This document shows positions 10,094-21,554 of a stretch of DNA of 64,000 nucleotides, in pieces. Position numbers and translations under genes: made by a program. The stretch spans positions 124,001 through 188,000 of the forward strand of contig CAIPYE010000004.1 of NCBI GenBank assembly GCA_903869265.1, read 5' to 3'. The notes beneath the pieces are model-generated. The model searched no databases. It saw only the letters and a program-made list of their open reading frames with translations, and had not been told where the DNA came from. The stretch's first letter is position 1; each line of letters opens with the position of its first letter. Source of the DNA: an uncultured delta proteobacterium (GTDB lineage Bacteria > Desulfobacterota > Desulfobulbia > Desulfobulbales > Desulfurivibrionaceae).

Positions 10094-10516
10094 GTGGAAC
10101 AGCAGGCAACTCTTGATATTCTCTATGTGGCAGCCTTTTTTCTTGGTGGCCTCGGCTTTGCGGTGGGGCCGTTTATTATCGCCCTTCTTCTGGCCCCCCG
10201 GTCCACCCGAAACACCCAGGAAAAAACAAAGCAACTCATTGAATGCGGCATGGAGCCCATCGGCGACGCCTGGATTCGTTTTGGGGTTGTCTACTACCTC
10301 TATGCTTTGATGTTTGTGGCTTTTGCCGTGGACATCCTCTTTTTGTTCCCAGTGGCGCTTATTTATAACAGGGCAGGGCAGGCCGGGATCAATGTCGGCG
10401 ACCTTCGCGCTTTTCTTGAGATCCTGATTTTTGTCGGAATCCTGTCCTTGATAATCATCTATGCTTGGAAAAAGGGAGTGTTCAAGTGGGAACGCAAAAT
10501 ATACAACCCGCGATAG
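10094..10516 (+). CDS. nuoA: Complex I subunit NuoA
   Basis: 140 residues with three transmembrane helices, the standard NuoA topology. The conserved cytosolic loop region [30 protein letters not shown] carries the Cys and acidic residues of the family. NuoA helps frame the quinone channel at the hydrophilic-membrane interface of complex I. Start GTG 10094 has AAGGAG nine bases upstream. It opens a run of thirteen complex I genes and overlaps nuoB. Confidence 0.95.
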
Positions 10517-10983
10517 TTCAGTTTGCCCAGCTTGACAAACTGCTTGCCTTGGGACGCGCCAATTCTCTCTGGCCCATGACCTTTGGCCTTGCCTGCTGCG
10601 CCATTGAGATGATGGCCACCGGTGCCTCCCGCTTCGATCTGGCCCGGTTCGGCGCCGAGGTGTTCCGGCCCTCCCCTCGCCAGTGCGATGTGATGATTGT
10701 CGCTGGCACCATCAGCAAGAAGATGGCTCCTGCCGTGGAAACCCTGTACGACCAGATGCCCGAACCCAAATGGGTCATCGCCATGGGCAACTGCGCCATC
10801 TCCGGCGGACCCTTTGTTTTCGAAGGCCAGTACGGCATTGTCGAAGGAGCGGATAAGTTGTTTCCGGTGGATGTGTTCATTCCTGGATGTCCGCCGCGCC
10901 CCGAGGCCTTGATTGAGGGGATTCTTGAGCTTGAAGAAAAGATAACGGGTTCCCGCAGATGGCCAAGAGTGGAGGTGGGTTGA
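10486..10983 (+). CDS. nuoB: Complex I subunit NuoB (cluster N2 carrier)
   Basis: 165 residues in the preferred start. The N2 4Fe-4S ligands are visible: tandem Cys in [10 protein letters not shown], Cys in MGNCAISGG, and Cys in PGCPPRPEA. NuoB passes electrons to quinone together with NuoD. I choose GTG 10486 because GGGAG lies eight bases upstream; a TTG at 10465 is also in frame. It overlaps the end of nuoA by 31 bp. The canonical GSCA motif reads GNCA here, a conservative change that keeps the cysteine. Confidence 0.95.
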
Positions 10984-10985
10984 TC

Positions 10986-11558
10986 ATGAATTGTGCCGCG
11001 ATCAAACAGAAACTGGCCGCCAGTGGGGCTGAGTCGGTAATCGAAACGGAATACGCCCGCAAAGGCTTTGCCTTGGACGTGCAGGTTGCCCCGGAACATT
11101 TAGTTGCCGCAGTCTCGGTGCTGGATGCGGAAGGATTTTTCATCGAGGCTGTCACCGGGGTGGACTGGCTGGGCGAGCAGGCGGCCCTGCGCAAGGAAAC
11201 GGAGGCAAAAGCTGCCGCCGAAGCCAAGGTCAAGGCTGAGGCCGCCGCGGCTGCGGGAGAAGAAGCCCCCGCCGTTGCGGTGCATGCGGAGCAGGGCGAG
11301 CTTCCTGAGGACGTCTTGGAGGCGGTGTACGACTTCAATCATTATGAATATCTGTGTCGGGTGACGATCAGAACCAGGATGGTGCGCAGCAAGCCGGAGG
11401 TTCCCACCATTTCGCAGATTTATCCCGGGGCCAACTGGCATGAGCGGGAAACCCATGATTTTTTCGGGATCATCTTTGTCGGGCACCCCTATCTGGTGCC
11501 GTTGTTGTTGCCGGAAGATGCTGATTATCATCCCCTGCTGAAGGATTTTCGCCCATGA
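10986..11558 (+). CDS. nuoC: Complex I subunit NuoC with an internal Ala/Glu-rich insertion
   Basis: 190 residues. The 30-kDa-subunit signature is present late in the protein: [23 protein letters not shown] and [16 protein letters not shown] (quoted in parts). Between the N-terminal fold (to about residue 70) and the [16 protein letters not shown] strand lies an unusual low-complexity block of about 35 residues rich in Ala, Glu and Lys (roughly 72-107). Most NuoC proteins lack this. Start ATG 10986 has GGAGGTGGG just upstream. It overlaps nuoD (ATGA at 11555). NuoC is the peripheral-arm subunit that binds NuoB/NuoD. Confidence 0.92.
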
Positions 11559-12673
11559 GCGCCTTTGCTGAAAGTGAAGCCAAAGAAACATTCGTCTTAA
11601 ACCTTGGCCCGCAGCATCCTGCCACCCATGGGGTTCTGCGTGTCAAGCTGACCATGGACGGAGAGTACATCGTCGAAGCGGAGCCGGTTTTGGGCTACAT
11701 CCACCGCATGCATGAGAAGATGGGGGAGAACCGGACTTGGGCCCAGTTCCTGCCCAACACCGGCCGGATGGACTATCTCCATGCCCTTGCTTTTAATCAT
11801 GGTTATGTCTCGGTGGTGGAACGGGCCGCGGGCATTGAGGTGCCGGAGCGGGCCGAATACCTGCGGGTGATCACCTCCGAGCTGAACAGGGTTTCCAGTC
11901 ATCTCCTCTGGTTTGGCGCTTTTATCCTGGACTTGGGTGGGTTTTCTCCGTTGCTTTATGCCTTTGACGACAGGGAGCATATCCTTGATCTGTTGGAATC
12001 GGTAACCGGTTCCCGTCTCACCTATTGTTATTTCCGCTTTGGCGGGGTGTACAACGACATCGATGGTGATTTTGTTGTCGGCGCTCGGGCCTTTATCAAG
12101 CGGTTGCGCGGACGGATGCCCATGTACCACAACCTGGTTACCAAGAACATTATCTTGATGAAGCGACTTCGGGAAGTCGGGCCGATTTCCGCAGAGATGT
12201 GCCGGAAGTACGGGGCAACCGGCCCTGTGTGCCGGGGCTCCGGTATCAATTTTGACGTGCGCAAACACGAGCCGTATTCCATCTACCCCGAAATGGACTT
12301 TGAGGTGCCGGTGTACGAGCAGTGCGATTCCATGGCCCGCTATATGGTGCGGATGGACGAAATAGAACAGAGTCTGCGCATTGTTGAACAGGCCCTGGAT
12401 AAACTGCCCGAAGGCCCGGTCATGGCGGACAAGGTTCCCAAGATCATCAAACCCCCCAAGGGCGATTATTACCATGCCGTGGAGACGGCGCGCGGCTCGT
12501 TTGGCGTGCGGGTGGTCAGCGACGGGAGCAACACCCCGTATCGGCTGAAACTCCGTTCCCCAACCTATTCCAATTTGAGCCTCTATGGTGAGGCTTGTCA
12601 GGGCATGTTGCTGCCTGACGCCCTCGCCCTGATGGGAAGCCTGGATTTGGTCATCCCCGAGATAGACAGGTAA
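11555..12673 (+). CDS. nuoD: Complex I subunit NuoD (49-kDa, quinone site)
   Basis: 372 residues, slightly short for the family. It has the LGPQHPATHGVLR loop near residue 12-24 that carries the quinone-site His, then GYIHRMHEKM, and a conserved C-terminal SLDLVIPEIDR. NuoD and NuoB form the quinone-reduction site, homologous to the large subunit of NiFe hydrogenases. As expected for a true NuoD, the hydrogenase nickel-binding CxxC pairs are absent. Translationally coupled to nuoC. A GSFGVRVVSDG segment replaces the commoner GELGxYxVSDG. Confidence 0.96.
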   Translation: MSAFAESEAKETFVLNLGPQHPATHGVLRVKLTMDGEYIVEAEPVLGYIHRMHEKMGENRTWAQFLPNTGRMDYLHALAFNHGYVSVVERAAGIEVPERAEYLRVITSELNRVSSHLLWFGAFILDLGGFSPLLYAFDDREHILDLLESVTGSRLTYCYFRFGGVYNDIDGDFVVGARAFIKRLRGRMPMYHNLVTKNIILMKRLREVGPISAEMCRKYGATGPVCRGSGINFDVRKHEPYSIYPEMDFEVPVYEQCDSMARYMVRMDEIEQSLRIVEQALDKLPEGPVMADKVPKIIKPPKGDYYHAVETARGSFGVRVVSDGSNTPYRLKLRSPTYSNLSLYGEACQGMLLPDALALMGSLDLVIPEIDR

Positions 12674-12684
12674 GGAGCTTCGTT

Positions 12685-13677
12685 ATGTATGTGGATCCTG
12701 AAATAATACGGCTGCTGGCATTCCTGATCGGAGTGATCGCCTTTGCCGCCCTGAACGCCGCCTATCTGGTCTGGCTGGAACGGAAAGAGGCTGCGCACAT
12801 CCAGCGGAGGATCGGACCCAAGGAGGTTGGCCCCTTTGGCCTGTTCCAGCCTCTGGTCGACGGCATCAAGCTGATGACCAAGCAGCTCATTGTTCCGGCC
12901 GGAGTTGATCCTGTCCTGTTCAAGATTGCTCCGATTCTGGTCATGGTCCCAGCGATCATGAGCTTTGTCACCATTCCCTTCAGCGACACGCTGGTGGCGA
13001 GAAATCTGGACATCGGCTTGTTGGCCATCTTTGCCTTTGCCTCGGTGAACGTTCTCGGGCTTCTCCTGGGCGCCTGGGGCTCGCGCAATAAATATGCGGT
13101 CATCTCTGCGGCCCGTGTGGTTTCCCAGAACGTGGCCTACGAGATTCCCATGCTGGTCACGGTGGTGACCCTGGTTATGATCAGCGGCACCATGAACCTT
13201 TCCAAGATCGTCGGCCTGCAGATGGGCGGCTTCTGGCATTGGAACATCTTTAATTTTTCGGCCAGCCCCCTGATGCCCGTGGCCTTCCTGATCTTTTTTG
13301 TCTGCATGCTGGCGGAGACCAACCGGGCTCCCTTTGACATGGCCGAGGCGGAGAGCGAGCTGGTTGCCGGCGCATTCACCGAGTACTCGGGCATGGGCTT
13401 CGGCGTCTTTTTCATGGGCGAGTATGCCAATATCGTCATCGGCGCCAGTGTGGCCACCATCCTTTTCCTGGGTGGTTGGGATTGCCCTTTCGGGCTTTTT
13501 CCGGGTGTGCACTGGTTCCTGATCAAGATGTACTTTTTGATCTTCACTGTCATCTGGATCCGCTGGACCTATCCGCGCACAACCTTTTACGGGCTGCTCA
13601 ATCTTTCCTGGAAGATTTTGATCCCGATTTCCTTTGTTAACCTGATTCTTACCAGTGCCATGTTGAAGGTGTTTTAA
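12685..13677 (+). CDS. nuoH: Complex I subunit NuoH
   Basis: 330 residues with about eight transmembrane helices. Family signatures: WLERKEAAHIQRRIGP near residue 30-45 and ETNRAPFDMAEAESELVAGAFTEYSG (quoted for its key residues; about 212-237), whose acidic residues line the E-channel. NuoH joins the quinone site to the membrane proton channels. It follows nuoD by 11 bp with AAGGAG as ribosome-binding site. nuoE, nuoF and nuoG, which commonly lie between nuoD and nuoH, are absent. Confidence 0.97.
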   Translation: MYVDPEIIRLLAFLIGVIAFAALNAAYLVWLERKEAAHIQRRIGPKEVGPFGLFQPLVDGIKLMTKQLIVPAGVDPVLFKIAPILVMVPAIMSFVTIPFSDTLVARNLDIGLLAIFAFASVNVLGLLLGAWGSRNKYAVISAARVVSQNVAYEIPMLVTVVTLVMISGTMNLSKIVGLQMGGFWHWNIFNFSASPLMPVAFLIFFVCMLAETNRAPFDMAEAESELVAGAFTEYSGMGFGVFFMGEYANIVIGASVATILFLGGWDCPFGLFPGVHWFLIKMYFLIFTVIWIRWTYPRTTFYGLLNLSWKILIPISFVNLILTSAMLKVF

Positions 13678-13679
13678 CC

Positions 13680-14120
13680 ATGATCGACTATCTCAGAGAG
13701 ATTATCAGCGGGACCTGGAGCCTGTTTGTCGGCCTGGGGATTACCATCAGGTATTTTTTTCAGCCGGTGGTGACGGTGCAGTATCCCCACGAGACCTTGC
13801 CCATGACCCCACGGTTCCGGGGGCATATTGAGCTGGTAAAGGACGAAGAAACCGGCGAACCCAAGTGCATCGTTTGCGGCATGTGCCAGAAGGCCTGCCC
13901 CTCCAACTGCATCACGGTGAATGGCGAGAAGCGTGAAGGGGTGAAGGGGAAGGTATTGACCGAGTACACCCTGGATTTTACCAAATGCAGTCTGTGCGGG
14001 CTCTGTGTCGAAAGCTGTACGCCCAAGGCAATCACCTTTTCTAAGGATTACAATCTCGCTGGCGTCAGAAAGGAAGCATACATCTTTGATCTCAAAAAAC
14101 GCTTGGAGGCAAAGAACTGA
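13680..14120 (+). CDS. nuoI: Complex I ferredoxin-like subunit NuoI
   Basis: 146 residues with two 4Fe-4S motifs: Cys63, 66, 69, 73 and Cys103, 106, 109, 113. These correspond to clusters N6a and N6b, the wire leading to N2. In a complex lacking NuoEFG, this subunit is the probable entry point for electrons from a soluble donor such as ferredoxin; that is inference. It begins two bases after the nuoH stop, and its last base pair overlaps the nuoJ start. Confidence 0.95.
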   Translation: MIDYLREIISGTWSLFVGLGITIRYFFQPVVTVQYPHETLPMTPRFRGHIELVKDEETGEPKCIVCGMCQKACPSNCITVNGEKREGVKGKVLTEYTLDFTKCSLCGLCVESCTPKAITFSKDYNLAGVRKEAYIFDLKKRLEAKN

Positions 14121-14644
14121 TGGTGTCCCTGTTTACGGTTGAAGGCCTGTCCGGCCTCTTGTTTTTCGGTTTCATGGGGTTGACGCTGGCCGGGGCGATT
14201 GTTGCCACCAACGCCCGCAGTCTGATCCGCAGCGTGGCCGGGTTGGCCCTTTGTTTTCTTGGCGTGGCCGGGCTCTACTACTATCTCAACAGCCCCTTTG
14301 TCGCCCTGATGCAGATTCTTATCTACGTGGGTGCGGTTTGCGTCACCATCATCTTTGCCGTGATGCTGGCCGAATCTTCGGAGCTCAAGCAGATCACCAG
14401 CCGTAACGGGCTGGTCGGGCCCCTGGCTTTTCTGGCCAGCGGTATTCTGATTTTTGCCTTGGCTGGGCTGGCTTTGAGAACCCAATGGCGTCCAGCCCCC
14501 TGCCTGGTGAATCGCGGCACGGTTGAAAATCTTGGCCAGTCTTTGCTCACCACATACAGCATGAGCTTTGAACTGATTTCCGTGGTCTTGCTGGTGGCGG
14601 TGGTCGGCTCGTTGGTTCTGGCCCGGGCCGGGAGGGATAAGTAA
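14120..14644 (+). CDS. nuoJ: Complex I subunit NuoJ
   Basis: 174 residues with five predicted transmembrane helices. The family pattern is seen in RSLIRSVAGLALCFLGVAGLYY and LMQILIYVGAVCVTIIFAVML (key residues; about 34-77). NuoJ includes the flexible helix at the E-channel. Start ATG 14120 overlaps the nuoI stop by one base, and its stop touches nuoK in the same way, so nuoI, nuoJ and nuoK are tightly coupled. Confidence 0.93.
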   Translation: MVSLFTVEGLSGLLFFGFMGLTLAGAIVATNARSLIRSVAGLALCFLGVAGLYYYLNSPFVALMQILIYVGAVCVTIIFAVMLAESSELKQITSRNGLVGPLAFLASGILIFALAGLALRTQWRPAPCLVNRGTVENLGQSLLTTYSMSFELISVVLLVAVVGSLVLARAGRDK

Positions 14645-14970
14645 TGTACATTCTTGTGCTCAGCAACAACTTGCAGACCTATCTGGTGATCGGCGCCCTG
14701 CTCTTCGGTATTGGTATCTACGGTATGGTGCAGCGTCAGACTTTCATCGGCATGTTGATTTCCGCGGAACTGATCCTGAGTGGGGCTTCCCTCAACTTCA
14801 TGGCCTTTAACCGCTTTCTGGCGCCCGATCCCACGGTTGGCCAGGTCTTCACCCTGTTCATCATGGCCATTGCCGCTGCCGAGGCAGCCATTGCCCTGAG
14901 CATAATCATCGCCGTTTATCGGAACTACAAATCCATCGACACCGAAGATGTCGTGGATCTGCAAGGTTAG
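14644..14970 (+). CDS. nuoK: Complex I subunit NuoK
   Basis: 108 residues with three transmembrane helices, as expected. Membrane glutamates are present in the usual places: one in GMLISAELILSGASLN and one in AAAEAAIALSII. NuoK is a small antiporter-like subunit (MrpC type) forming part of the proton path. The start overlaps the nuoJ stop by one base; the next gene starts 20 bp after its stop. Confidence 0.95.
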   Translation: MYILVLSNNLQTYLVIGALLFGIGIYGMVQRQTFIGMLISAELILSGASLNFMAFNRFLAPDPTVGQVFTLFIMAIAAAEAAIALSIIIAVYRNYKSIDTEDVVDLQG

Positions 14971-14990: not shown

Positions 14991-16496
14991 ATGGATACAA
15001 TTGTTTCCGTAAAACCGCTGCTCGCCATACTGACGGCCCTGGCCGGTGCCGTCCTCGTGATGATGTCCGGTCGCAAGCCCAATATCAGGGAGTCGTGGTC
15101 TTTTATCGCGGCGGTGACGATGTTTGGCATCATCGCTTCGATGATCACCACCGTTGCCCCGGCACCCATGGGCGAGGGCAAAACCATTGTCTATCAGTTG
15201 TTTAAGATCTTGCCCGGTGTCTCCGTCACGCTGCGGGTCGACGCCTTTTCCATGATCTTTGCCGTGGTCGCCTCCTTCCTCTGGATGCTGGCGGTGTTTT
15301 ATTCCCTTGGCTACATGCGGGGGCTGCACGAACATGCGCAGACCCGGTTCAATGCCTGTTTCGCCCTGGCCCTGTTTGGCGCCATCGGCGTGGCCTTCTC
15401 CGACAATCTGTTTACCCTCTATCTTTTCTACGAGATCGTCAGCATCTGCACCTACCCGCTGGTTGCCCATCACCAGGATGAAGAGGGGTACGAGGGGGCC
15501 AAGAAGTATATTATTTATTTGACCACCACGGCCAAGGGGTTGGTGCTGCCGGCCATGATCCTTATCTATGTGCTCACCGGCTCTCTTGATTTTGCCGATA
15601 ATATTCGCACCGGCATTTTTTCCAGTGGCACCGTTAACGCCCATGGCGCTTTGGTGACAATGCTCTACGTCTTCTGCCTCCTGGGTTTTGCCAAGAACGG
15701 CATCATGCCCTTCCACAACTGGCTCCCTGGCGCCATGGTGGCCCCGACCCCGGTTTCCGCTTTGCTCCATGCCGTGGCCGTGGTCAAGGTCGGTGTGTTC
15801 TGCACAACCAGGGTCATGCTCTATGTGTTTGGCACCGACCTGATGCATGGCTTAAATCTTGGTATCCCCACTGCTTATTTTGTATCCTTCACCATTTTGG
15901 TGGCTTCGATCATCGCCCTGTCCAAGGATAATCTCAAGGCGCGCCTCGCCTATTCAACGGTGAGTCAGCTTTCTTACATCATCCTCGGCGTGGCCCTCCT
16001 CACTCCCGATGGCATTCAGGGCGGGCTGATCCACATCGCCAACCATGCCTTCGCCAAGATCACCCTCTTCTTCTGCGCCGGCGCCATCTATGTGGCGACC
16101 CATAAGAAATCCATCTCCGAGATGAGCGGCCTGGGACGGTCCATGCCCTTCACCTTTGGCGCCTTCGCCATAGCCTCTCTCAGCATGATCGGGGCACCGC
16201 CGGTTGCCGGTTTTGTCACCAAGTGGAAGCTTCTGGTGGGAACCATGGAAATGGAGTCCCATTATATCGGCATTTTGCTGGTGCTGCTTTGCAGCACCTT
16301 GCTGAATGTGGCCTATTTTGCGCCAGTGACCTATCGGGCATTTTTTGGCAAACGCCCGGAGGGGGAGGCCTATGCAGGGATCAAGGAGGCTCCTCTGACC
16401 ATGGTGGTGCCCATCATGATTGCCGCGATTATTTCGGTGGTCATCGGCATCTACCCTGATTTTATGATGAACTTTGTCAAGGCGGTGACGGGATGA
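14991..16496 (+). CDS. NuoL/MrpD-like antiporter subunit, first copy
   Basis: 501 residues, about 14 transmembrane helices. Typical antiporter-like features: Glu in TM5 (LFYEIVSICTYPLVA), a Lys in FAKNGIMPFHNWLPGA, PTPVSALLHAVAVVKVG, and LKARLAYSTVSQLSY. It occupies the NuoL slot but is too short to carry the long lateral helix of canonical NuoL (about 610 residues). In length and motifs it resembles MrpD or NuoM-type proteins. Its stop overlaps the start of the small membrane gene (ATGA at 16493). It should pump protons or sodium as part of the membrane arm. Confidence 0.85.
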   Translation: MDTIVSVKPLLAILTALAGAVLVMMSGRKPNIRESWSFIAAVTMFGIIASMITTVAPAPMGEGKTIVYQLFKILPGVSVTLRVDAFSMIFAVVASFLWMLAVFYSLGYMRGLHEHAQTRFNACFALALFGAIGVAFSDNLFTLYLFYEIVSICTYPLVAHHQDEEGYEGAKKYIIYLTTTAKGLVLPAMILIYVLTGSLDFADNIRTGIFSSGTVNAHGALVTMLYVFCLLGFAKNGIMPFHNWLPGAMVAPTPVSALLHAVAVVKVGVFCTTRVMLYVFGTDLMHGLNLGIPTAYFVSFTILVASIIALSKDNLKARLAYSTVSQLSYIILGVALLTPDGIQGGLIHIANHAFAKITLFFCAGAIYVATHKKSISEMSGLGRSMPFTFGAFAIASLSMIGAPPVAGFVTKWKLLVGTMEMESHYIGILLVLLCSTLLNVAYFAPVTYRAFFGKRPEGEAYAGIKEAPLTMVVPIMIAAIISVVIGIYPDFMMNFVKAVTG

Positions 16497-16744
16497 TAGT
16501 GAAACTGATTGATTTTCTGCGTGACCGGTTGCAGCTGGTCATCCGTCTGTCCTATGTCGGGCTGGCGCTTCTGGTGGCCTGGGACGTCCTTTTTGTCTCC
16601 AAAGAACATGCCCATACCGCAGTGGAGCATATCCCGGGTTTCTGGGCGGTCTTCGGCTTTGTCGCCTGTGTGGTGATCATCATTGTTTCCAAGTGGTACG
16701 GCCACCTGGGAATCATGACCCGTGAGGATTACTATGATAACTGA
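16493..16744 (+). CDS. Small two-helix membrane protein within the nuo operon
   Basis: 83 residues with two hydrophobic segments (about 17-34 and 50-66) joined by a polar loop containing KEHAHTAVEH, and a charged C-terminus (REDYYDN). It does not match a canonical Nuo subunit. It is locked in place: its start overlaps the preceding antiporter stop, and its end overlaps the next antiporter start (ATG 16734) by 11 bp. The likely role is an accessory subunit that fits between the two antiporter-like proteins. Unknown family to me. Confidence 0.75.
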   Translation: MIVKLIDFLRDRLQLVIRLSYVGLALLVAWDVLFVSKEHAHTAVEHIPGFWAVFGFVACVVIIIVSKWYGHLGIMTREDYYDN

Positions 16745-18536
16745 TTTTTGGTTGCATCCATCCCTGATACTCATTGTTGGCGCACTTATTCTGCCGTTTT
16801 TGCCGAAATGGCTGAAGCGGCCCTATCTGGTCATTGTCCCGACTCTGGCCTTTCTGGATGTGCTGTCCATGCAGGGGCAGTACGGCACCTTTGGGGTGGT
16901 TCATTTCCTTGACTGGTTCCTCACCTTTGGCCGGGTGGACGCACTGACCATGGTTTTTGCCTACATCATGACCCTGATGTGCATTATTGGCACCATCTAC
17001 GGGCTGCATGTGGAAGACGATTTCCAGCATGTCGCGGCCTGGCTCTATGTGGCCGGTTCGCTGGGGGTAATTTTCTGCGGTGATTATCTGGTGCTCTTTC
17101 TCTTCTGGGAGCTGATGGCCTTTGCCTCGGTTTTTCTGGTCTGGTTCCGCAGGCGGCCTGAATCCCTGGGGGTCGGCTACCGGTATTTGCTGGTGCATAC
17201 CGCCGGCGGCCTTGCCCTGTTGGCCGGGCTTGTTCTCCGCTACCAGGCCACCGGCGGCGATCTCTCTTTCGGTCCCATCGGCGTGGGCAATCCGAGCATC
17301 TCCACCTATCTGATCATGATCGGCTTTCTCTTAAATGCTGCGGTGCCGCCTTTCCATGCCTGGTTGCCCGACGCCTACGGGGAAGCCACCGTGACCGGCG
17401 CCGTCTTCATGTGCGCCTTCACCACGAAAACTGCGATTTACGCCCTGGCCCGCGCCTTTGCTGGAATGGAGATCCTGGTGCCGCTGGGTGTCTGCATGGC
17501 TCTCTACGGTGTTGTTTACGCAGTGCTTGAAAACGATGCCCGTCGGTTGCTTGCCTACCATATTATCAGCCAGGTTGGTTACATGGTGGCCGGGGTGGGC
17601 ATCGGCACCGAGCTTGCCATCAATGGTGCCTGCGCCCATGCCTTTGCCCACATCCTCTATAAAGGGCTGTTGTTCATGGGTTGTGGCTCCGTGCTGCACA
17701 TGACCGGCAAAAGCAAATTCACCGATTTGGGCGGTCTCTATAAGAAGATGCCAAAGACCTTTGTATTCACCTTGATCGGTGGGCTTTCGATCTCGGCCTT
17801 CCCGCTCTTTTCCGGGTTTGTCAGCAAGTCGATGATCGTCGCCGCGGGATTCGAAGAGCATATTTATTGGGCCGCTTTTCTGTTGACCCTGGCCTCTGCC
17901 GGTACCTTCCTGCACACCGGCCTTAAGGTGCCGTATTTTATCTGGTTCGGCAAGAACAACTGCAGCCAGGAGACCTGGGACAAAGCGGCTGATCCGCCTT
18001 GGAACATGCAGCTAGCCATGGGCGTCGCTGCCTTCCTCTGTATCTTCATCGGCTGCTATACGCCTTACCTCTACAATATGTTGCCGTACCAGGAGGAGGC
18101 GCGCCATTACGCTCAACTGGTTTACGGTCGCTACCATGTCTCCGAGAGCTTGCAGATTCTGCTCTTTACTGCGGTGGGCTTCTTCTTGCTCATCAAAAAG
18201 CTTGCCCCGGAGCCGAAGATCAGTATCGACCTTGATTGGTTCTATCGCATGGGTGGCCGCGGCTTTTTCTGGCTTGCCAGAAAGCCCATCCAGTGGGCGG
18301 ATAATTGTGTCAGTGAAGGGTATCGCTACGTTGGCCTGATTCCGCTCATGACCACGGCCAACTTTTGGTCCTGGTTTGACTGGCATGCCATTGACGGCGT
18401 GGTTGACGGTCTGGCGAAAACAGTGCGCGGCGTCGGTGGTTTGGTGCGACGAACGCAGAGCGGCCAGTTGCAGTACAACATTTTTTATGCGGTATCCTTT
18501 GTCGCGGTTGCGCTCGTTTTATACGTATTTGCCTAA
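16734..18536 (+). CDS. NuoL/MrpD-like antiporter subunit, second copy, with long C-terminal extension
   Basis: 600 residues. The core has TM5 Glu (LFLFWELMAFASVFLVW) and the motif PPFHAWLPDAYGEATVTGAVF, followed by TTKTAIYALA and ARRLLAYHIISQVGYM. Where most members have Lys before PPFH/PLH, this one reads LLNAAVPPFH, so that lysine is replaced by Asn; related proteins labelled Na+/H+ antiporter subunit D seem to share this. The C-terminal 130 residues include an amphipathic, Trp-rich stretch and a final TM after RRTQSGQLQY, which recalls the NuoL tail and lateral helix. ATG 16734 has GAGG six bases upstream. Confidence 0.85.
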   Translation: MITDFWLHPSLILIVGALILPFLPKWLKRPYLVIVPTLAFLDVLSMQGQYGTFGVVHFLDWFLTFGRVDALTMVFAYIMTLMCIIGTIYGLHVEDDFQHVAAWLYVAGSLGVIFCGDYLVLFLFWELMAFASVFLVWFRRRPESLGVGYRYLLVHTAGGLALLAGLVLRYQATGGDLSFGPIGVGNPSISTYLIMIGFLLNAAVPPFHAWLPDAYGEATVTGAVFMCAFTTKTAIYALARAFAGMEILVPLGVCMALYGVVYAVLENDARRLLAYHIISQVGYMVAGVGIGTELAINGACAHAFAHILYKGLLFMGCGSVLHMTGKSKFTDLGGLYKKMPKTFVFTLIGGLSISAFPLFSGFVSKSMIVAAGFEEHIYWAAFLLTLASAGTFLHTGLKVPYFIWFGKNNCSQETWDKAADPPWNMQLAMGVAAFLCIFIGCYTPYLYNMLPYQEEARHYAQLVYGRYHVSESLQILLFTAVGFFLLIKKLAPEPKISIDLDWFYRMGGRGFFWLARKPIQWADNCVSEGYRYVGLIPLMTTANFWSWFDWHAIDGVVDGLAKTVRGVGGLVRRTQSGQLQYNIFYAVSFVAVALVLYVFA

Positions 18537-18563
18537 TTTTTATTATTACCGAGGATAGTGGGA

Positions 18564-20087
18564 ATGGACTTTTTGATAATGAATACGATGGGGTTTCCCA
18601 TCCTGAGCGCCCTGATTTTTCTGCCTTTGGTCGGGGCCCTGATTTTGTTATGTATTCCCGGGGATACTGCGGCCAAGAACTGGACGATGCTGGTGACCGT
18701 GGTTACGGCGCTGGTTTCCCTGCCCCTCTACTGGAATTTTGATGCGACCACCGCCAAATATCAGTTCGGCGAACATGCTTCCTGGATTTCGGCCCTGAAT
18801 ATCAACTATACCTTGGGCGTCGATGGTATCTCCCTGCTGTTGATTTTGCTGACGACCATGATCATGCCCCTGTGCGTCCTTGGTTCCTGGCGGTATATCG
18901 ACAAACGGGTCAAGGAATTCATGATCTGCCTGTTGCTCATGGAAACCTCCATGCTCGGCGTGTTCATGGCCCTGGATTTCATCCTGTTTTACCTATTGTG
19001 GGAAGCGATGCTCATTCCCATGTACCTGTTGATCGCGGTCTGGGGCGGCCCTCGCAAGGTGTATGCTTCGACCAAGTTTTTCCTCTACACTCTGGCAGGC
19101 TCGGTCATGTTGCTTGTTGCCATCATCGGCCTCTACCTTGACCAAGGAACCTTCAGCATTCCCGCCTTGATGGGGCAGGATTATTCCACGACCTTCCAGG
19201 TTGTGGTCTTCCTGGCCTTTTTCCTGGCCTTTGCCATCAAAGTGCCGATGTTTCCCTTCCATACCTGGCTGCCCGCCGCCCATGTCGAGGCGCCCACCGC
19301 CGGTAGCGTTATCCTGGCCTCGATTCTGCTGAAGATGGGAACCTATGGGTTTTTACGCTTTTGCCTGCCCATAACCCCGGAAGCCACCATGATCTTCGTG
19401 CCCTATATCCTGTGGCTTTCGGTGGTTGGTATTCTGTACGGGGGCTTCACCGCCCTGGCCCAGCAGGACATGAAAAAACTGATTGCCTACTCCAGCGTCG
19501 GGCACATGGGTTTTGTCACCCTTGGTATTTTTGTCCTGAACCAACAGGGACTTGAGGGGGCGCTCCTGCAGATGATCAATCACGGCATCACCACCGGCGC
19601 CCTCTTCTTCTGCGTGGGCATGATCTATGAGCGAACCCACAGCCGGGAGCTGGACGCAGCGGCAGGGCTTGGCAAATACATGCCGGTGTATGTCAGCTTT
19701 CTGGCCTTCTTTTCGCTTTCTTCCCTGGCCTTCCCCGGAACCAACAGTTTTGTCGGCGAGTTCATGATTCTGGTCGGTAGCTTTACCAATAATAAGATTG
19801 TCTCCGCCTTCGCCATTCCTGGAGCGATTTTGGCTGCCGCCTACATGTTCCGCATGCTCCAGCGGGTGGTGTGGGGCAGGCCTGTGAACCCGGATCACTC
19901 TGGCATCTCCGACTTGAATATCCGGGAGATGGTGACCCTGGCGCCCTTGCTTTTCTTTGTTTTTTGGATTGGCTTGTCTCCGGCGCCGTTTTTGAAGGTG
20001 ATGCATGTGAGCGTTACCCATCTCATTGAGCAGGTGGGGGTTGCTTCGGGCGGCGCTGTTTCTGTTGCAAAGCTGATGCTTCCGTAA
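18564..20087 (+). CDS. nuoM: Complex I subunit NuoM
   Basis: 507 residues, about 14 transmembrane helices. NuoM signatures: GVDGISLLLILLTT near residue 90, TM5 Glu in FYLLWEAMLIPMYLLI, and IKVPMFPFHTWLPAAHVEAPTAGS (key residues; about 225-248), followed by LLKMGTYGFLRF. It is a proton-pumping antiporter-like subunit. I prefer ATG 18564 over GTG 18558 because GAGG then lies nine bases upstream. It follows the second antiporter gene by 27 bp. Confidence 0.95.
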   Translation: MDFLIMNTMGFPILSALIFLPLVGALILLCIPGDTAAKNWTMLVTVVTALVSLPLYWNFDATTAKYQFGEHASWISALNINYTLGVDGISLLLILLTTMIMPLCVLGSWRYIDKRVKEFMICLLLMETSMLGVFMALDFILFYLLWEAMLIPMYLLIAVWGGPRKVYASTKFFLYTLAGSVMLLVAIIGLYLDQGTFSIPALMGQDYSTTFQVVVFLAFFLAFAIKVPMFPFHTWLPAAHVEAPTAGSVILASILLKMGTYGFLRFCLPITPEATMIFVPYILWLSVVGILYGGFTALAQQDMKKLIAYSSVGHMGFVTLGIFVLNQQGLEGALLQMINHGITTGALFFCVGMIYERTHSRELDAAAGLGKYMPVYVSFLAFFSLSSLAFPGTNSFVGEFMILVGSFTNNKIVSAFAIPGAILAAAYMFRMLQRVVWGRPVNPDHSGISDLNIREMVTLAPLLFFVFWIGLSPAPFLKVMHVSVTHLIEQVGVASGGAVSVAKLMLP

Positions 20088-20132: not shown

Positions 20133-21554
20133 ATGAAGCTCATGCTGTTTGCTCCAGAATTATTGCTTCTCTTGGGGAGTCTGGTCCTTTTCCTGGTCAG
20201 TACCGGCAAGGTTGGCGGCAAGAAGGCCCGCGCCGTGACATTGGGTCTGGCGCTGATCAATGTGCTGGTCTGTCTGGCCTGTGTGCGTCAGGAAGGCACT
20301 CTGTTTTACGAGGCGTACCGGATTGATTTCTTCTCGCAGCTCATCAAGCTTGTTATTGCCATGGGGTTTGCGGTTGTGCTGCTCTTCAGCACGGAGTTGA
20401 AAGGGATCGATGACGATATCCGCCCTGAGTATTACCTGTTTTTGACCTTGAGTACCCTGGGCCTTGTCATGCTGGTGAGCAGTGTCGAACTGCTCACCAT
20501 GTTCATTGCCTTGGAGCTTTCTTCCTACTCCCTTTATATTCTGGTGCCCATGCGTGATGACCGCACCGGCCTGCGGATGCAGATGGAGTCTGCGATCAAG
20601 TACATCCTTTTCGGGGTGGTCGCCACCGGGGTCATGCTGTTTGGCATGAGCTACTTGTTCGGCCTCACCGGCACCACCTATCTTGTCGCGCTTTTGCCAA
20701 AACTTCACCAGATGATGGGCAACCCTGCTGCCCTCATCGCCATCGTCATGGTTTTGGGCGGTTTCTTTTTCAAACTGGCGGTATTCCCCTTCCATTCCTG
20801 GGTGCCGGATGTCTATCAGGGCGCGTCCAACGAAACAACCGCGTTCATCGCCTCGGTTCCCAAGGTCGCTGCCGTGGCCATGCTCATCCGGCTCACCGCA
20901 ATGGCCACCCCGGAGGGCCAGGCCATTGTTACCTTACTCATCGTCCTGTCGGTCTGTTCGATGTTTTACGGCAATCTTGTTGCCTTGGTTCAGACGGACA
21001 TGAAAAGGATGCTCGGTTTCTCCGGCATAGCCCATGCCGGTTATGTCTTGTTGGGTCTTGTCACCATGCAAGAGGTTGGCTACGCCACCTCGCTGTATTA
21101 TATCGTCGGCTATCTGGTGATGAATCTTGCCGCTTTTCTGGTTATTTGCAAAGTGTCCGAGCACGGCGAGAACCTTGCTGTGGATGATTTGAGCGGATTG
21201 CACAAACGTGCTCCTCTCCTCGCCCTGACTCTGGCGGTCAGCATGTTTGCCATGGCCGGCATTCCCCCGTTTGTCGGGTTCATGGGTAAATTCATGCTGC
21301 TGACCGGCGCTTACAAGGCAGGGCATCTCCCCTTGGTCATTTTGGCGGCCATCAATACCGCCATCTCCATCTATTACTACCTCTCCGTGGTTCGGGTCAC
21401 CTATTCAGCCAGCCCGGAGGATCGTCCCGCCGTGGTTGTCGGTGGGGTGGCCAAGGCGGTAAGCGTTGCTCTGGTTATGATCATCATCGCCATGGGGCTT
21501 CTTCCTGACCAGTTTCTGCAACTGGCCACGGACGCTGTTCGCGCCATCCTCTAA
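20133..21554 (+). CDS. nuoN: Complex I subunit NuoN
   Basis: 473 residues, about 14 transmembrane helices. NuoN features: FIALELSSYSLYILV in TM5, FFFKLAVFPFHSWVPDVYQGA (key residues; about 208-228), and DMKRMLGFSGIAHAGYVLLG. It is the antiporter-like subunit nearest NuoJ/K. It ends the operon and is followed by a GTTTCCCCT/AGGGGAGAC hairpin. With the two NuoL-like proteins and NuoM, the operon encodes four large antiporter-type subunits rather than three. Confidence 0.95.
   Translation: MKLMLFAPELLLLLGSLVLFLVSTGKVGGKKARAVTLGLALINVLVCLACVRQEGTLFYEAYRIDFFSQLIKLVIAMGFAVVLLFSTELKGIDDDIRPEYYLFLTLSTLGLVMLVSSVELLTMFIALELSSYSLYILVPMRDDRTGLRMQMESAIKYILFGVVATGVMLFGMSYLFGLTGTTYLVALLPKLHQMMGNPAALIAIVMVLGGFFFKLAVFPFHSWVPDVYQGASNETTAFIASVPKVAAVAMLIRLTAMATPEGQAIVTLLIVLSVCSMFYGNLVALVQTDMKRMLGFSGIAHAGYVLLGLVTMQEVGYATSLYYIVGYLVMNLAAFLVICKVSEHGENLAVDDLSGLHKRAPLLALTLAVSMFAMAGIPPFVGFMGKFMLLTGAYKAGHLPLVILAAINTAISIYYYLSVVRVTYSASPEDRPAVVVGGVAKAVSVALVMIIIAMGLLPDQFLQLATDAVRAIL

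What the first reader, a model, noticed from the sequence alone, without database searches (positions are those of the whole stretch)
16493..18536. Second antiporter subunit lacks a canonical pump lysine and overlaps a novel small subunit
In the 600-residue protein, the position before PPFHAWLP that is usually Lys in NuoL/M/N reads Asn (LLNAAVPPFH). Its C-terminal 130 residues hold a Trp-rich amphipathic stretch and a final helix, resembling the NuoL arm. The 83-residue gene overlaps both antiporter genes and is likely an obligate partner.
Basis: partly seen in the sequence, partly recalled or inferred. Interest (0 to 1): 0.55.

Follow-up and report, generated by a model that had tools for sequence, protein, structure and literature searches.

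The report
Complex I with split end subunit
In this bacterium the end of a respiratory proton pump is built from two antiporter-like proteins and a small unnamed membrane protein; the outermost one belongs to a whole family that naturally lacks a lysine thought indispensable for pumping.

Summary
The 600-aa protein (16734-18536, 'D2') has Asn201 exactly where E. coli NuoL/M/N have K229/K234/K217. This is not a local oddity: 97 of 98 D2 homologues carry Asn, from Desulfobacterota, Verrucomicrobia, rhizobia and haloarchaea. All comparison subunits keep Lys (one NuoN has Arg). No conserved Lys replaces it, but a D2-only His155 on helix 6 appeared (96 of 97). D2 carries a NuoL-type lateral helix, 24-29 residues longer than in 13 NuoLs. 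The 83-aa gene is real and was found before D2 in every bacterial locus not cut by a contig end (78 of 78; 148 of 148), but not in 4 haloarchaeal loci. It has no Pfam/NCBIfam match and is 'hypothetical protein' in rhizobia. The architecture (two MrpD-like subunits replacing NuoL) is already published as 'green complex I'; here it lacks nuoEFG. What I did not find in the papers I could search: the family-wide Lys-to-Asn change, its His partner, and the small subunit. Likely meaning: D1 keeps the NuoL-type pump residues, while D2 is an arm-bearing end cap that cannot pump in the canonical way, so counting one proton per antiporter subunit may overestimate this enzyme.

The parts
10094..14970 (+). 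nuoA, B, C, D, H, I, J, K (10094-10516, 10465-10983, 10959-11558, 11555-12673, 12685-13677, 13680-14120, 14120-14644, 14644-14970); no nuoE/F/G
   Evidence: ORFs; family matches (some NCBIfam matches below their curated cut-offs); no NuoF domain PF10589 in the whole genome, control rings in 7 of 14 genomes
14991..16496 (+). D1 (MrpD1-like), 501 aa; keeps the NuoL/MrpA-type residue set, has no lateral-helix arm
   Evidence: NCBIfam NF006236 824.9 bits, cut-off 663; K235 in the column of NuoL K229, His in the column of NuoL H254 in 88 of 88 D1 rows with a letter there; groups with E. coli NuoL, support 0.911
16493..16744 (+). 83-aa two-helix membrane protein between D1 and D2 ('small'); conserved C-terminal [D/E/N]-[Y/F]-Y motif
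   Evidence: No Pfam match at E<=1 and no NCBIfam match; AlphaFold helices 2-11, 13-34, 50-74, pLDDT 87.5; dN/dS 0.02-0.30; co-occurrence
16734..18536 (+). D2 (MrpD2-like), 600 aa, terminal antiporter-like subunit with NuoL-type arm
   Evidence: NCBIfam NF009310 744.7 bits, cut-off 564 (run on 16737-18536, one codon short); AlphaFold pLDDT 88.5, structural match to NuoL/ND5 and MrpD chains, Z 41-44
17196..17198 (+). His155 codon (CAT), helix 6, D2-specific
   Evidence: His in 96 of 97 D2 rows with a letter; 0 of 217 in D1, NuoM, NuoN, MrpD and E. coli NuoL
17334..17336 (+). Asn201 codon (AAT) in place of the helix-7 lysine
   Evidence: Column shared with E. coli NuoL K229, NuoM K234, NuoN K217; Asn in 97 of 98 D2 rows
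18237..18455 (+). Lateral (transverse) helix HL of D2, residues 502-574
   Evidence: AlphaFold DSSP; motif span 77 residues against 48-53 in 13 NuoL
18468..18530 (+). Last transmembrane helix of D2, residues 579-599
   Evidence: AlphaFold DSSP
18558..20087 (+). nuoM
   Evidence: TIGR01972 628 bits; keeps Lys on helix 7
20133..21554 (+). nuoN
   Evidence: TIGR01770 352 bits; keeps Lys214 on helix 7

Best explanation
This is a nuoEFG-less complex I of the published 'green' type, in which NuoL is replaced by D1 + an 83-aa two-helix protein + D2, so the membrane arm carries four antiporter-like subunits. Shown by sequence: D1 keeps the NuoL/MrpA-type set of channel residues; D2 keeps the NuoL-type arm (longer by 24-29 residues) but its whole family lost the helix-7 lysine (Asn201) and three other NuoL-type residues (positions of H254, K305, T312), and gained His155 on helix 6. 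Inferred: the arm order is N-M-D1-D2; D1 is the last canonical pump unit (and the exit site in models with a NuoL-only exit); D2 is an end cap whose longer lateral helix straps D1, M and N together, and its Glu126/His155/Lys232 serve at most as a terminal charge relay; the small protein is a structural partner at the D1-D2 junction. Prediction: the same number of protons per two electrons as an ordinary complex I, not one more.
For: Identity and order of genes. Asn at the Lys column in 97 of 98 D2; Lys in 88 of 88 D1 with a letter there, 66 of 66 NuoM, 58 of 59 NuoN (one Arg), 4 of 4 MrpD and 13 of 13 NuoL. D2 is one clade (support 0.998), sister to D1 + E. coli NuoL (1.0); D1 pairs with NuoL (0.911). 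NuoL H254, K305, T312 columns: D1 has H 88, K 89, T 89 of 90; D2 has M/L 98, R 98, I 95 of 98. Arm span: 48-53 residues in 13 of 13 NuoL; 76-79 in 70 of the 78 D2 in which the motif was found. Module inside nuo clusters in 73 of 80 loci and inside mrp clusters in 4. Literature read as passages: PMC7419157 (helix-7 Lys 'absolutely conserved, essential'; [quoted passage not shown] transverse helix structural), PMC10212512 (NuoL-only exit model).
Against: D2 keeps the helix-5 Glu, helix-8 Lys, helix-11 His pair and helix-12 Lys under strong conservation, more than a pure spacer should need. His155 may stand in for the lysine. D2 with Asn also occurs in stand-alone Mrp-type clusters, where an ion-translocating role is expected. 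No structure of the assembled complex; no distances could be measured because the tool returns no coordinates. Subunit order and the place of the small protein are inferred.
Confidence: 0.55

Rival explanations
1. D2 does pump, by a rewired route: His155 on helix 6 (and Lys232 on helix 8) takes over the role of the helix-7 lysine and pairs with Glu126, so the complex moves one extra proton as proposed in print.
For: His155 and Asn201 are both fixed in D2 and absent elsewhere. In NuoL the neighbouring helix-6 residues R175 and D178 form ion pairs with E144 and K229 (PMC13144422, passages), so helix 6 faces this site. Output-side residues are kept. PMC9040806 proposes 5-6 protons for such complexes.
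Against: A histidine is a much weaker base than lysine; D2 also lost the NuoL-type His on helix 8 and swapped K305 for Arg. His155 sits in the column of NuoL T174, one residue off R175; no distance could be measured.
Confidence: 0.33
2. D1-small-D2 is a separate Na+/H+ antiporter whose genes merely sit in the nuo operon.
For: NCBIfam names both proteins Na+/H+ or monovalent cation/H+ antiporter subunit D; the same module occurs in mrp clusters, and D1-D2 in haloarchaeal mrp clusters.
Against: 73 of 80 loci are nuo clusters; the window's genome has no NuoL: best TIGR01974 score 209 bits, cut-off 407.5. Complex-I-type D2 arms keep the NuoL-like end. The published rhizobial case is treated as complex I.
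Confidence: 0.07
3. The small ORF is a chance overlapping frame, or a leader that only couples translation of D1 to D2.
For: It overlaps both genes; part of its conserved tail overlaps the D2 start.
Against: dN/dS 0.02-0.30 outside the overlaps; conserved in protein sequence across phyla; the tail motif persists in 15 of 16 loci where it does not overlap D2 by more than 4 nt; rhizobial and verrucomicrobial copies present.
Confidence: 0.03

Closest known systems
Green complex I of rhizobia (Degli Esposti and Martinez Romero 2016; not held, read only as described in PMC9040806)
   Same: Two MrpD-like subunits replace NuoL; the same J-K-D1-small-D2-M-N order on S. meliloti, Phyllobacterium and R. 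lentis plasmids; small gene present there as 'hypothetical protein'.
   Different: Rhizobial clusters carry nuoE, F, G (R. lentis nuoE seen); the window and its genome lack NuoF. D2 identity to rhizobial D2 about 52-54%.
Complex_I_3 of Candidatus Manganitrophaceae (PMC9040806)
   Same: Two MrpD-like subunits closest to green complex I; lengthened lateral helix in MrpD2.
   Different: Five antiporter-like subunits, a further 26-aa arm insertion that rhizobial green MrpD2 lacks. I did not inspect its helix-7 residue.
2M complex I of Nitrospira (Chadwick et al. 2018; not held, via PMC9040806)
   Same: Fourth antiporter-like subunit with an arm insertion of similar length (about 26 aa by PMC9040806; 24-29 here).
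   Different: The extra subunit is a second NuoM and NuoL is kept.
Mrp antiporter (MrpA/MrpD)
   Same: D1-small-D2 also sits in mrpEFGBCD clusters where MrpA's antiporter domain would be.
   Different: Classical MrpA is one long chain and MrpA/MrpD keep the helix-7 Lys (PMC7419157).
DabB2 of the DAB2 complex (PMC13144422)
   Same: A NuoL relative with a naturally broken Glu/Lys ion-pair site.
   Different: DabB2 lost the Glu and kept the Lys; D2 did the reverse.

Membership tests
Green complex I | nuo cluster with membrane and Q-module genes but no NuoL | tested here: met
   no NuoL over cut-off in the genome
Green complex I | Two MrpD-like subunits in place of NuoL | tested here: met
   NF006236 and NF009310 over their cut-offs; homologues in the same order in rhizobial clusters
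Green complex I | Assembly of both subunits into an active complex I | not testable with these tools
   Needs purification or cryo-EM
NuoL | Score over the NuoL family cut-off (TIGR01974, 407.5 bits) | tested here: not met
   D1 212.8, D2 155.2 bits
NuoL | Helix-5 Glu with helix-7 Lys pair | tested here: not met
   D2 has Glu126 and Asn201; D1 has Glu148 and Lys235 (met for D1)
NuoL | C-terminal lateral helix followed by a last TM helix | tested here: met
   D2 only: motif span; D1 has no such tail (sequence)
NF009310 Na(+)/H(+) antiporter subunit D | Curated score cut-off 564 | tested here: met
   744.7 bits
Any known family for the 83-aa protein | Match to Pfam, NCBIfam, a solved chain, or a Nuo/Mrp subunit profile | tested here: not met
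   PDB sequences best E 0.15; hhalign best probability 21% against MrpD, 2.4% or less against 14 other profiles
Any known fold for the 83-aa protein | Foldseek match in the PDB | tested here: inconclusive
   Best E 4.4; two-helix hairpins are too simple to judge

The most novel reading that the evidence does not exclude
D2 is a natural, clade-wide loss-of-lysine antiporter subunit that has become a non-pumping end cap, held by an undescribed obligate two-helix subunit, so green complex I keeps ordinary proton stoichiometry despite four antiporter-like subunits and its proton exit lies in D1, one subunit short of the tip.
Probability: 0.4. Interest if true: 0.68.

Novelty: new member of a known kind. 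Interest (0 to 1): 0.5.

Why it matters
The helix-7 lysine is described as absolutely conserved and essential in antiporter-like subunits (PMC7419157). A widespread family that lacks it, on the arm-bearing subunit, is a natural experiment on two open questions: does each antiporter-like subunit pump one proton, or do all protons leave at the tip? It also warns against counting extra antiporter genes as extra pumped protons, as done for organisms with such complexes (PMC9040806), and it names a conserved unstudied small subunit.

Tried and rejected
Fusion idea: haloarchaeal D1 is longer (582-654 aa), so I suspected that the small protein is fused to it; the profile gave 1.6 bits, and the extra length is an internal loop. 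Rejected. Remote homology of the small protein to Nuo/Mrp subunits: hhalign negative. Fold matching of the small protein: nothing usable. Tail motif as a by-product of the overlapping start codon: rejected by 15 of 16 loci with at most 4 nt overlap. Open frames of about 1200 aa printed for D1: not a D1-D2 fusion here, since D1 ends at TGA 16494-16496 followed in frame by TAG and TGA. Same-genus genomes without the small gene (G003, G009, G011): none has D2 over the cut-off either; G009 and G011 hold another nuo cluster with a NuoL-like gene. Papers: searches found no description of Asn at this site in D2 or of the small subunit (judged from listings and from the passages read); the two most relevant papers (Degli Esposti 2016, Chadwick 2018) are not held and were not read.
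Full report
WHAT IS THERE. The window carries nuoABCDHIJK (10094-14970), then D1 14991-16496, an 83-aa ORF 16493-16744, D2 16734-18536, nuoM 18558-20087 and nuoN 20133-21554, all on +. The 83-aa ORF overlaps D1 by 4 nt and D2 by 11 nt. NCBIfam files D1 under NF006236 (824.9 bits, cut-off 663) and D2 under NF009310 (744.7, cut-off 564); neither reaches the NuoL model TIGR01974 (212.8 and 155.2 bits, cut-off 407.5); the 83-aa protein matches nothing. The genome has seven Proton_antipo_M places: these four and three in a hydrogenase-4-like cluster. It has no NuoF domain and no NuoL over the cut-off.

THE LYSINE. A MAFFT alignment with E. coli NuoL, NuoM and NuoN puts D2 Asn201 in the column of K229, K234 and K217; helix-5 Glu126 aligns with E144/E144/E133 and helix-12 Lys365 with K399/E407/K395. 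Over all rows aligned, D2 has Asn in 97 of 98 (Ser in L078). D1 has Lys in 88 of 90 (2 gaps), NuoM 66 of 66, NuoN 58 of 59 (one Arg), MrpD 4 of 4. Twelve NuoLs of the order plus E. coli NuoL have Lys in 13 of 13. D2 forms one clade with support 0.998; D1 pairs with E. coli NuoL (0.911). So the change most likely happened once, at the base of D2.

COMPENSATION. The ionisable residues fixed in D2 (95% or more) and rare elsewhere are His155 (96 of 97; Leu/Thr/Gly elsewhere), Arg150 and Arg270 (Lys elsewhere), and Asp499 in the arm. In NuoL the same stretch of helix 6 holds R175 and D178, partners of E144 and K229 (PMC13144422, passages); D2 has mostly Thr/Val/Ile and Gly there. His155 is one residue off the R175 column. 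Whether it touches Glu126 could not be measured.

WHO KEEPS THE NuoL CHANNEL. In D1 the columns of NuoL H254, K305, T312, H334, H338, K342 and K399 are kept (88 of 90, 89 of 90, 89 of 90, 89 of 90, 90 of 90, 90 of 90, 90 of 90). D2 has lost H254, K305 (Arg) and T312 (Ile) besides K229, and keeps H334, H338, K342 and K399 almost fully. PMC13358369 (passages) describes H254, K229, K305 and K342 as the junction residues of NuoL.

THE ARM. AlphaFold (61 sequences, mean pLDDT 88.5, pTM 0.83) gives one helix 502-574 and a last helix 579-599; confidence along the arm falls to 61-85 in places. Structural matches are NuoL/ND5 and MrpD chains, Z 41-44, mostly covering the core. The span from the D-x-x-Y motif that starts the arm to the x-x-G motif before the last helix is 77 residues in the window and 76-79 in 70 of the 78 D2 in which the pattern was found (five gave 68; three gave 18, 25 and 45, early or broken matches). 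Of the 92 D2 rows not labelled Mrp by my script, 14 had no pattern, 4 of them haloarchaeal and Mrp-type in fact; of the 6 rows labelled Mrp, 4 had none and 2 gave an early match. NuoL gives 48-53 in 13 of 13. By alignment columns the difference is smaller (77 against 57-62), because part of the NuoL stretch before the motif is then counted. The extra 24-29 residues are close to the 26 aa reported for other four- and five-subunit complexes (PMC9040806, section 10) and fit a lateral helix that must pass one more subunit; that fit is inference.

THE SMALL PROTEIN. AlphaFold: helices 2-11, 13-34, 50-74, pLDDT 87.5. The topology (N and C termini inside, His-rich loop outside) is my reading of the charges. 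Found next to D2 in 78 of 80 genome-contig loci; the other two (L090, L091) begin inside D2. In 297 genomes of the phylum, 146 of the 150 listed D2 places over the cut-off have it directly upstream on the same strand; of the four misses, two start at a contig end and two have a divergent copy (E 1.9e-7, 1.7e-8). Of the four small hits without a listed D2, three were fetched and lie within about 720 nt of the downstream contig end, too short for a D2 gene, and the fourth starts at base 3 of its contig. In the first survey 16 of 19 order relatives had it; the three without it lack D2 over the cut-off too. In four of four haloarchaeal loci D1 and D2 adjoin, once fused, with no small gene, yet D2 still has Asn. 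So the Asn does not depend on the small gene. dN/dS against eight relatives is 0.02-0.30.

CONTEXT. Of the 80 loci, 73 are nuo clusters, 4 mrp clusters and 3 too short to tell. Two order relatives carry both kinds (L035/L040, L036/L039). The module is thus shared by complex I and Mrp-type antiporters.

LITERATURE. PMC9040806 (passages and section 10) describes rhizobial green complex I as having two MrpD-like subunits in place of NuoL, and suggests 5-6 protons for complexes with extra subunits. PMC7419157 (passages) calls the helix-7 and helix-12 lysines absolutely conserved and essential; [quoted passage not shown] PMC10212512 (passages) argues for exit through NuoL only. PMC12361115, PMC5419562, PMC13220270 and PMC3046159 were looked at as passages and added little. 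I found no text on Asn in D2 or on the small subunit in searches; Degli Esposti 2016 and Chadwick 2018 are not held, so priority is unsettled.

VERDICT. The architecture is known; the clade-wide loss of the lysine, its histidine partner, the longer arm on the same subunit, and the ever-present small protein (in bacteria) together make a testable case that the outermost subunit is an end cap rather than a fourth standard pump.

Noticed in passing
G000:C4:20226-28485 (outside the window; L041 5551-15250): A second antiporter-rich cluster in the same genome: two HyfB-like proteins (755 and 666 aa) and one HyfF-like protein (480 aa), with nuoB/D/H/I relatives nearby. It looks like a group-4 hydrogenase-type complex; the NCBIfam scores are below the curated cut-offs.
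   Followed up: partly
L039, L040, L069, L083, L094, L096: D1-small-D2 sits at the end of mrpEFGBCD clusters without nuo genes; these D2 arms are similar in length but have a different C-terminal sequence.
   Followed up: partly
L171, L175, L176, L177: Haloarchaeal plasmid Mrp clusters have D1 directly followed by D2 (fused into one 1096-aa ORF in Halobaculum marinum), with a long insert in D1 (His-rich in L171) in three of them and no small gene.
   Followed up: partly
L191 (G011:C3), L192 (G009:C69): Two same-genus genomes hold a divergent nuo cluster with a NuoL-like gene of 655-675 aa and no D1-small-D2; swap, extra complex or binning error not resolved.
   Followed up: partly
L056, L058: Gene order differs: nuoM lies before D1-small-D2 and nuoN after it.
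   Followed up: no
10094-14970: No nuoE, F, G beside the cluster and no NuoF domain in the genome, so the electron donor is probably not NADH (ferredoxin or another donor is a guess).
   Followed up: partly
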